From Actinomycetota bacterium (GTDB lineage Bacteria; Actinomycetota; Thermoleophilia; Solirubrobacterales; 70-9), in the NCBI GenBank assembly GCA_018268675.1, contig JAFDWB010000089.1:62001-126000 (forward strand): DNA of 64,000 nucleotides, given 5' to 3'. Shown piece after piece: positions 42,277 through 43,706 of this stretch. Positions within the stretch are counted from its first letter, which is position 1. Each line of letters opens with the position of its first letter. The notes below the pieces were generated by a model. It saw only the letters and a program-made list of their open reading frames with translations, was not told the origin of the DNA and made no database searches. The position numbers were made by a program, and so were the translations under genes.

Positions 42277-42396
42277 TTGACCCACCCACCCAGATTGGGT
42301 ACTCTGCCGTCACACACATCGTGCTGGGCATCCCCCAGCACTTGGGCGGCCCGTCGGGGCCGCCCGTCCTCCAAGACCGCCCACCGGCGGTCTTGG
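42277..42396 (+). ncRNA. Promoter plus structured leader RNA of the DUF3800 fragment
   Basis: A sigma70-like promoter, -35 TTGACC (42277-42282) and -10 TACTCT (42300-42305) with a 17-base spacer, is followed by three perfect stem-loops in tandem: 42321-42341 (8-bp stem), 42344-42365 (9-bp stem, loop GTCG) and 42371-42396 (11-bp stem, loop CACC). The start codon is 16 bases after the last stem. Structured RNAs have been described beside DUF3800 genes in comparative surveys, so a cis-regulatory or small RNA is plausible; the last stem might also act as a terminator. Confidence 0.6.
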
Positions 42397-42411
42397 CTAT
42401 TTAGGGCTCCG

Positions 42412-42732
42412 ATGCAGCTCTGCTACGTGGACGAGTCGGGCACCGCCGAGACGCTGGTCGAATCCGACCCCGACCAGCAACCGGTGATCGTCGTCGCGGG
42501 CGTCTCGCTCCCGGAGCGGGACCTCACCAAGATCACCCACGAGTGGATCAAGCTCAAGACGCGGTTTCATCCGAGCATCGCCGATTCAGGAAATGGCTGG
42601 CTCGACGCGATCCTCAAAGAAGTCAAGGGGGCCAAGCTGCGAAACGGCTTCCGCGGCGAGTCATCCCAGCGCCGACGCAAACAGGCGGTCGGCGTGATCG
42701 ATGGGACTGGAGCATCGCTGATCCAGGGGCGG
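42412..42732 (+). pseudogene. Truncated DUF3800 gene
   Basis: The first roughly 100 residues from the ATG at 42412 match the N-terminus of DUF3800 proteins: CYVDESGT with the acidic active-site-like residues, VIVVAGVSLPE, WLDAILKEVKGAKLR, and KQAVGVIDGT. The homology ends near 42710, and the frame then runs on through the shadow of the MoxR gene to 43113. Normal family members are about 250 residues, so more than half is missing. The break point is immediately upstream of the moxR start, suggesting a deletion or rearrangement scar. Confidence 0.65.
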
Positions 42733-42758
42733 CTTGGACGGTCCGCAATACTGGCTTC

Positions 42759-43706
42759 ATGGCCACGTTGCGTGCCGTTCGGTTTTCCGATGCCGGCGTC
42801 GCCGAGTGGGGCGAGCGGTTGGCTCAGGGCATTGCACGGGGGATGCAGCTGGACCGGGAGATGCTGCAGGTGGTGCTGTGCACGCTGCTGGCCGGCGGGC
42901 ACCTGCTGCTCGAGGACCGGCCGGGAGTCGGGAAGACGCAGCTGGCCCGCAGCCTGGCCGCCAGCATCGACGGGCGGTTCGCGCGGATCCAGGGAACCGT
43001 CGACCTCCTGCCCAGCGATGTTCTCGGGACGACGATCTGGCGGGCGAGCACGGAGGCGTTCGAGTTCCATCCCGGACCGATCTTCGCCAACGTGGTGCTG
43101 GTCGACGAGCTGAACCGGGCGACGCCGAAAACGCAGTCGGGGCTGCTCGAGGCGATGGCCGAGCTGCAGGTGACGGTCGAAGGGCGGGCGCACCCGCTGC
43201 CGCGGCCGTTCACGGTGATCGCGACGCAGAACCCGACCGCGGGCTTCGACGGCACCTACGCGCTGCCGCCGGCCGAGCTCGACCGGTTCATGACCCGGCT
43301 CTCGCTGGGCTACCCCTCAGCCGGGGCCGAGGCCGACCTTCTCCACTCCCCGCCGCCGCCCGCGCTGCCGCCGGTCGCCGACCTCGCCGAGGCCTCGGCG
43401 GCGATCGCCGCGGTCGCCGAGGTGGAGGCGCGCCGGCCGCTGCTCGAGTACATCGTCTCCCTGCTCGAGGCGACCCGGCGCCACCCGCTGAGCGAGGCCG
43501 GGGCGAGCCCGCGGGGCGGCCTCATGCTGCTCGCCGCCGCCCGCGCCCGCGCGGCGCTCGAGGGGCGCGACTTCGTCGTCCCCGACGACGTGCAGGCGCT
43601 CGCCGGGCCGGTCCTCGCCCACCGGATCCAGACGGTCGGCGGCGCTGCCGCCGAGGCGCAGCTGACGATCGTCGACGACGCCCTGGAGGAAGTGCCGGCG
43701 CGATGA
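42759..43706 (+). CDS. MoxR-family AAA+ ATPase
   Basis: About 315 residues. Walker A DRPGVGKTQLA near residue 50, Walker B VVLVDELNRATPKTQSGLLEAMAE, sensor 1 in VIATQNP and a C-terminal lid domain. MoxR proteins are chaperone-like ATPases that act with DUF58 and transglutaminase or von Willebrand proteins encoded alongside. The ATG at 42759 starts the conserved protein; upstream reading frame belongs to the DUF3800 remnant. The stop overlaps the DUF58 start (ATGA). Confidence 0.92.
   Translation: MATLRAVRFSDAGVAEWGERLAQGIARGMQLDREMLQVVLCTLLAGGHLLLEDRPGVGKTQLARSLAASIDGRFARIQGTVDLLPSDVLGTTIWRASTEAFEFHPGPIFANVVLVDELNRATPKTQSGLLEAMAELQVTVEGRAHPLPRPFTVIATQNPTAGFDGTYALPPAELDRFMTRLSLGYPSAGAEADLLHSPPPPALPPVADLAEASAAIAAVAEVEARRPLLEYIVSLLEATRRHPLSEAGASPRGGLMLLAAARARAALEGRDFVVPDDVQALAGPVLAHRIQTVGGAAAEAQLTIVDDALEEVPAR

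What the first reader, a model, noticed from the sequence alone, without database searches (positions are those of the whole stretch)
42277..42412. Three-hairpin leader RNA in front of a DUF3800 gene remnant
A good promoter is followed by three tandem perfect stem-loops and then a DUF3800 start codon. RNA motifs associated with DUF3800 genes have been reported by comparative genomics, but I cannot say whether this is one of them. Here the RNA is intact while its gene is broken, so it may persist as an independent RNA or as an attenuator for the following envelope operon.
Basis: partly seen in the sequence, partly recalled or inferred. Interest (0 to 1): 0.62.

Follow-up and report, generated by a model that had tools for sequence, protein, structure and literature searches.

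The report
Orphaned partner RNA of DUF3800 gene
The three hairpins are a stranded copy of a small RNA that, in several bacterial phyla and on small plasmids, sits next to an RNase-HII-like gene of unknown function (DUF3800); here most of the gene has been deleted, and the RNA matches no family in the public RNA library that was searched.

Summary
In detail: a TTGACC-17-TACTCT promoter, three perfect hairpins (fold z -8) and the start of a DUF3800 gene cut after about 99 of 280 codons. The leader is a true structured RNA. The two closest intact DUF3800 genes have the same three stems with compensatory changes, and more distant relatives in Pseudomonadota, Myxococcota, Lentisphaerota, Planctomycetia, Synergistota and on plasmids carry the same core: P1, P2 (often GYCGAAC/GGGCGRC), RTCCT, P3, UUGUUU. 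In a 23-sequence alignment 14 of 18 pairs covary. None of the 4227 Rfam 15 families matches, although the same scan finds DUF3800-VI and DUF3800-VII beside other DUF3800 genes of this order. The RNA has its own promoter at a fixed distance and a terminator-like end. In two loci it is transcribed away from the gene, so it cannot be only a 5' leader there. DUF3800 models as an RNase HII fold (Z 11.4). Most likely the RNA is a trans-acting partner, probably inhibitor, of DUF3800, resembling AbiF/RCd22 and type III RNA antitoxins; activity is untested. The window copy is probably a relic. It is not the leader of the MoxR operon, whose sisters keep their own start region without it.

The parts
42277..42305 (+). 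predicted promoter of the RNA (TTGACC, 17 bp, TACTCT)
   Evidence: sequence; best-scoring site in the 130 nt before P2, none of 60 shuffles as good; relatives have a promoter at a consistent distance
42312..42402 (+). predicted RNA, about 90 nt: P1-P2-P3 and U-rich tail; start and end inferred, not measured
   Evidence: fold z -8.0; best match of model R2 in the window, E 1.9e-5 for 174 kb
42321..42341 (+). hairpin P1
   Evidence: 3 of 5 lower pairs change on both sides among window, L044 and L045
42344..42365 (+). hairpin P2 (fully paired here; most relatives have a GAAC/GGGC internal loop)
42366..42370 (+). conserved RTCCT linker
   Evidence: loci listed and alignment
42371..42402 (+). hairpin P3 with U-rich tail (terminator-like)
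   Evidence: 2 of 9 pairs change on both sides in the trio; 9 of 10 covary in the 23-sequence set
42412..42708 (+). DUF3800 remnant: first 99 codons, including the D7-E8 motif; the rest, including D156 and D204, is missing
   Evidence: PF12686 match; 66-67% identical to intact relatives up to residue 99
42709..42727 (+). junction between the remnant and the MoxR upstream region
   Evidence: homology to DUF3800 ends at 42708; homology to sister MoxR loci begins near 42728

Best explanation
The leader is one copy of a conserved small RNA of about 80-100 nt that is the genetic partner of one DUF3800 subfamily. Shown by comparison: three hairpins under covariation; a sigma-70-type promoter at a fixed distance; a terminator-like 3' end; one copy per genome, next to the gene; transcription away from the gene in some loci; a protein with an RNase HII fold. 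Inferred: the RNA acts in trans by binding the protein, most likely holding a nuclease in check, with readthrough of P3 giving a little protein and much RNA, as in AbiF/RCd22. In the window a deletion removed the last two thirds of the gene and its later catalytic residues and joined the remnant to the region just before the MoxR gene. The RNA survives as a probably non-essential relic.
For: Same RNA before the two nearest intact genes. Covariation 14/18 pairs, 99.2% of cells paired, 0/500 shuffles. RNA at five plasmid loci that were found through the protein only, E 5e-13 to 7e-18. RNA on the opposite strand with its own promoter in L052 and L062. Promoter scores 7.4 against 6.2 +/- 0.09 in shuffles, with the -10 ending 19-27 nt before P2 in 21 of 27 loci. 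No further true copies in 27 genomes or records. RNase HII fold, pLDDT 93.5, Z 11.4, with D7, E8, D156 and D204 invariant in the 19-sequence set. AbiF/RCd22 has the same layout and acts in cis and in trans (PMC12373285). Sister MoxR loci lack the RNA.
Against: No transcript, binding or toxicity data. The three hairpins are not tandem repeats, unlike type III antitoxins. L048 and L049 lack the RNA. The family models also score ordinary terminators weakly, and the window copy does not pass E 0.001-0.01 in a whole-genome scan. In most loci the RNA could still act in cis as a leader. The Thiothrix copy L120 has lost D7 yet keeps the RNA, which fits either a tamed nuclease or simple decay.
Confidence: 0.6

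Rival explanations
1. Cis-acting leader: the RNA is only a 5' UTR element that controls transcription or translation of DUF3800 through the P3 terminator and the Shine-Dalgarno site right after it.
For: In most loci it lies directly before the start codon with GGGG after the tail. Rfam files DUF3800-VI as Cis-reg.
Against: In L052 and L062 it is encoded on the other strand with a promoter-like site of its own (in L062 that site scores no better than shuffles); in L056 it ends about 80 nt before the gene. P2 is strongly conserved although it is remote from the start codon.
Confidence: 0.2
2. Functional cofactor: DUF3800 uses the RNA as a guide or scaffold to act on nucleic acid targets, rather than being inhibited by it.
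For: RNase H fold; DUF3800 proteins accompany some Cas12a2 and type VI loci (PMC10910872, PMC12669027).
Against: The only variable part, at the 5' end, is itself a small hairpin, so there is no obvious unpaired guide segment.
Confidence: 0.15
3. The orphan copy in the window is still useful, for example as an antidote against incoming plasmids that carry DUF3800.
For: All three stems are perfect and the promoter is in place; related systems sit on small plasmids.
Against: The remnant frame also has no stop, so the deletion may simply be recent. Seen in one genome only.
Confidence: 0.12
4. Attenuator or leader of the following MoxR operon.
For: Same strand, about 350 nt upstream, no strong terminator in between.
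Against: Three same-genus MoxR loci (83-87% identical) have unrelated DNA upstream and keep a conserved ATACT element 7-10 nt before the ATG.
Confidence: 0.03

Closest known systems
Rfam DUF3800 motifs: DUF3800-I (RF02969), DUF3800-VI (RF02915), DUF3800-VII (RF02967), DUF3800-IX (RF02968)
   Same: structured RNAs found next to DUF3800 genes in bacteria
   Different: none of their models matches any copy of this RNA that was scanned, while DUF3800-VI and -VII are found beside other DUF3800 genes of the same order; this RNA goes with a different DUF3800 subfamily
AbiF with ncRNA RCd22 (abiF motif RF03085) of Clostridioides difficile
   Same: promoter, RNA of about 100 nt with conserved hairpins, Rho-independent terminator, then a gene whose product binds RNA
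   Different: AbiF is an Abi_2 protein, not RNase H-like; the RNA sequences are unrelated; here no activity is known
Type III toxin-antitoxin systems (ToxIN, CptIN, TenpIN)
   Same: small RNA, terminator and nuclease-like gene in one short locus, often on plasmids
   Different: no tandem repeats; the protein is RNase HII-like
RNase HII / RNase H2
   Same: fold, and an N-terminal Asp-Glu motif
   Different: 10-15% identity, extra helices, and a partner RNA

Membership tests
Rfam DUF3800 RNA families | match to the family's covariance model above its gathering score | tested here: not met
   no match in the window or in 12 related loci at gathering level, nor at E up to 10 on the consensus-like member L061; DUF3800-VI and -VII found as positive controls
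DUF3800-associated RNA in the broad sense | conserved structured RNA adjacent to DUF3800 genes | tested here: met
   27 of 29 examined subfamily loci have it within about 200 nt of the gene; covariation
DUF3800 motifs of Weinberg et al. 2017 that are not in Rfam | same consensus and structure | not testable with these tools
   the paper is not held
[quoted passage not shown]
   the order holds in most loci and P3 plus UUGUUU is terminator-like, but no toxin or antitoxin activity is shown
Type III toxin-antitoxin | antitoxin made of tandem nucleotide repeats | tested here: not met
   P1, P2 and P3 differ in sequence and there is one copy of each
Type III toxin-antitoxin | toxin neutralised by the RNA | not testable with these tools
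   needs an experiment
RNase HII-like nuclease | RNase HII fold | tested here: met
   model pLDDT 93.5; the 24 best chains are all RNase HII, H2 or HIII, top Z 11.4, rmsd 3.7, 178 aligned
RNase HII-like nuclease | conserved acidic residues fit for an active site | tested here: met
   D7, E8, D156 and D204 are invariant in the 19-sequence alignment; their geometry in the model was not measured and activity was not tested

The most novel reading that the evidence does not exclude
A new class of RNA-controlled nuclease system: an RNase HII-like protein kept silent by its own three-hairpin RNA, spread between phyla on small plasmids and in chromosomes, with orphan RNAs left behind that could protect against it.
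Probability: 0.35. Interest if true: 0.8.

Novelty: new member of a known kind. Interest (0 to 1): 0.58.

Why it matters
DUF3800-associated RNAs were reported in 2017 (cited as such in PMC10910872), and no paper found here gives their function. This work defines an RNA family that is absent from Rfam 15, ties it to one DUF3800 subfamily, and shows loci where the RNA cannot be only a leader of the gene. It also points to compact plasmid loci (for example in Thiothrix) in which the RNA-protein pair can be tested directly.

Tried and rejected
Ordinary terminators or chance: rejected by covariation and by the independent plasmid loci. Known Rfam family: rejected. Extra solo copies of the RNA: the weak hits in other genomes are plain terminators without DUF3800. 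A DNA-pattern scan of viral contigs gave 52 matches; a hairpin-and-tail check left only the already known locus L065/L117. DNA similarity of the whole locus to relatives gave only short scattered matches. PADLOC and PHROGs give nothing solid for the protein. Phage records hold no close relative, and E. coli genomes hold no DNA match to the Klebsiella plasmid locus. The sequence search of solved structures gave only a doubtful partial match to 3-dehydroquinate synthase, which the fold comparison does not support.

Full report
What is there. The window (G000:C87:62001-126000) has, between an aminotransferase (ends 42177) and a MoxR ATPase gene (starts 42759), a promoter-like pair TTGACC-17-TACTCT, three perfect hairpins and a DUF3800 start. 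The fold is far more stable than shuffles (z -8.0). The DUF3800 frame matches PF12686 positions 1-44, and its homology to intact relatives ends at residue 99, so about two thirds of the gene are gone. In three same-genus genomes the MoxR region is 83-87% identical, but only from about window position 42728 onward, and the DNA upstream is unrelated. The remnant is therefore accessory DNA joined to the region just before the MoxR gene.

The leader belongs to the gene. The two closest intact DUF3800 genes (L015/L045 and L016/L044, Solirubrobacterales, 66-67% identical to the remnant) have the same P1-P2-P3 leader. Across only these three sequences all 66 cells of 22 pairs stay paired and five pairs change on both sides. 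A scan of 84,980 species genomes with the protein profile returned 21 loci with subfamily members, from Actinomycetota, Pseudomonadota, Myxococcota, Lentisphaerota, Planctomycetia, Synergistota and a Deltaproteobacterium; a viral-contig scan gave one more. All but L048 and L049 have the same core RNA: P2, mostly GYCGAAC..GGGCGRC, then RTCCT, a long P3 and UUGUUU.

Statistics. A covariance model of ten members finds the others; a 23-member alignment has 99.2% of cells paired and 14 of 18 pairs with changes on both sides, 0 of 500 shuffles as good (this alignment was fitted to the model, which flatters it, but the unfitted MAFFT alignment of ten gives 9 of 18 and 99.4%). Plasmid loci found only through the protein carry the RNA at E 5e-13 to 7e-18. 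It is a divergent member, and homology to L044/L045 is the stronger argument. Weak genome hits of these models are ordinary terminators, so the model score alone would not prove membership.

It is an RNA gene of its own. The best promoter in the 130 nt before P2 scores 7.4 on average against 6.2 (sd 0.09) in shuffles, and its -10 ends 19-27 nt before P2 in 21 of 27 loci and 38-39 nt before it in the window trio, which has a larger P1. The segment before P2 is enriched for a small hairpin (0 of 500 shuffles as good). In L052 (Rhizobium) and L062 (Rhizobiaceae) the RNA lies on the opposite strand and is transcribed away from DUF3800, so there it cannot be only the gene's leader. The RNA is single-copy in the genomes searched.

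The protein. A 19-sequence alignment gives a model with pLDDT 93.5. Solved RNase HII, H2 and HIII chains fill the top of both fold comparisons (best Foldseek E 1.6e-4; best Z 11.4 over 178 residues). D7, E8, D156 and D204 are invariant. This agrees with, and narrows, the RNase H fold reported for DUF3800 (PMC10910872; PMC12669027). The window remnant keeps only D7-E8, so it should be inactive (inference). In the protein tree the L044/L045 pair is a long separate branch, matching its divergent P2 and P1.

What is known. Rfam 15 has DUF3800-I and -IX (PMC11701678; RF02969), -VI and -VII. The last two were found by the same scan next to other DUF3800 genes of this order, which shows that the tool works. 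The RNA described here matches none. The original 2017 paper is not held, so a published motif outside Rfam cannot be ruled out.

How it probably works. The layout of promoter, short structured RNA, terminator-like hairpin and nuclease-like gene is that of AbiF/RCd22, where most transcription stops before the toxin gene and RCd22 also neutralises the toxin in cis and in trans (PMC12373285), and of type III systems (PMC5086642). By analogy the RNA is most likely a binding partner and inhibitor of DUF3800. This step is inference. It is not filed as type III because the tandem-repeat feature is not met. In the window the gene is lost, so the RNA is probably a relic; an antidote role is possible but untested.

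Noticed in passing
L059 and L064 (Synergistaceae, Deltaproteobacterium), about 90 nt before DUF3800: P2 appears flipped: the GGGC strand comes first and the GAAC strand second, as if the internal loop were kept while the hairpin loop moved to the other end.
   Followed up: partly
L120:5001-5030 (Thiothrix subterranea plasmid): DUF3800 with catalytic-motif Asp7 changed to Ala, while the near-identical Thiothrix unzii copy (L119) keeps Asp; both keep the RNA.
   Followed up: no
L063 and L064: Two further loci with the RNA but a disrupted DUF3800 frame (frameshift near codon 56; foreign sequence after about codon 70). Both lie near metagenome contig ends, so errors are possible.
   Followed up: partly
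L012:1222-1341: Two similar hairpins with a conserved GGCGTCGACCGNAGGGTNCATGGCC core just downstream of another DUF3800 gene; no match elsewhere in 41 related genomes or in viral contigs, and no Rfam match.
   Followed up: partly
L009:1425-1478 and L011:2321-2415: Rfam DUF3800-VI lies directly before one DUF3800 gene and DUF3800-VII lies after another in the same order, so several RNA types coexist here.
   Followed up: partly
L044:4266-4634: The intact relative sits a few hundred bases after a tmRNA gene, a common integration site; some other loci lie near tRNA genes.
   Followed up: no
L121:2360-3013 (Acinetobacter pittii plasmid): A second, different DUF3800 gene on the same small plasmid.
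   Followed up: no
window 42735-42761: Conserved ATACT element 7-10 nt before the MoxR ATG in all four same-genus loci, suggesting a leaderless or very short leader transcript.
   Followed up: no
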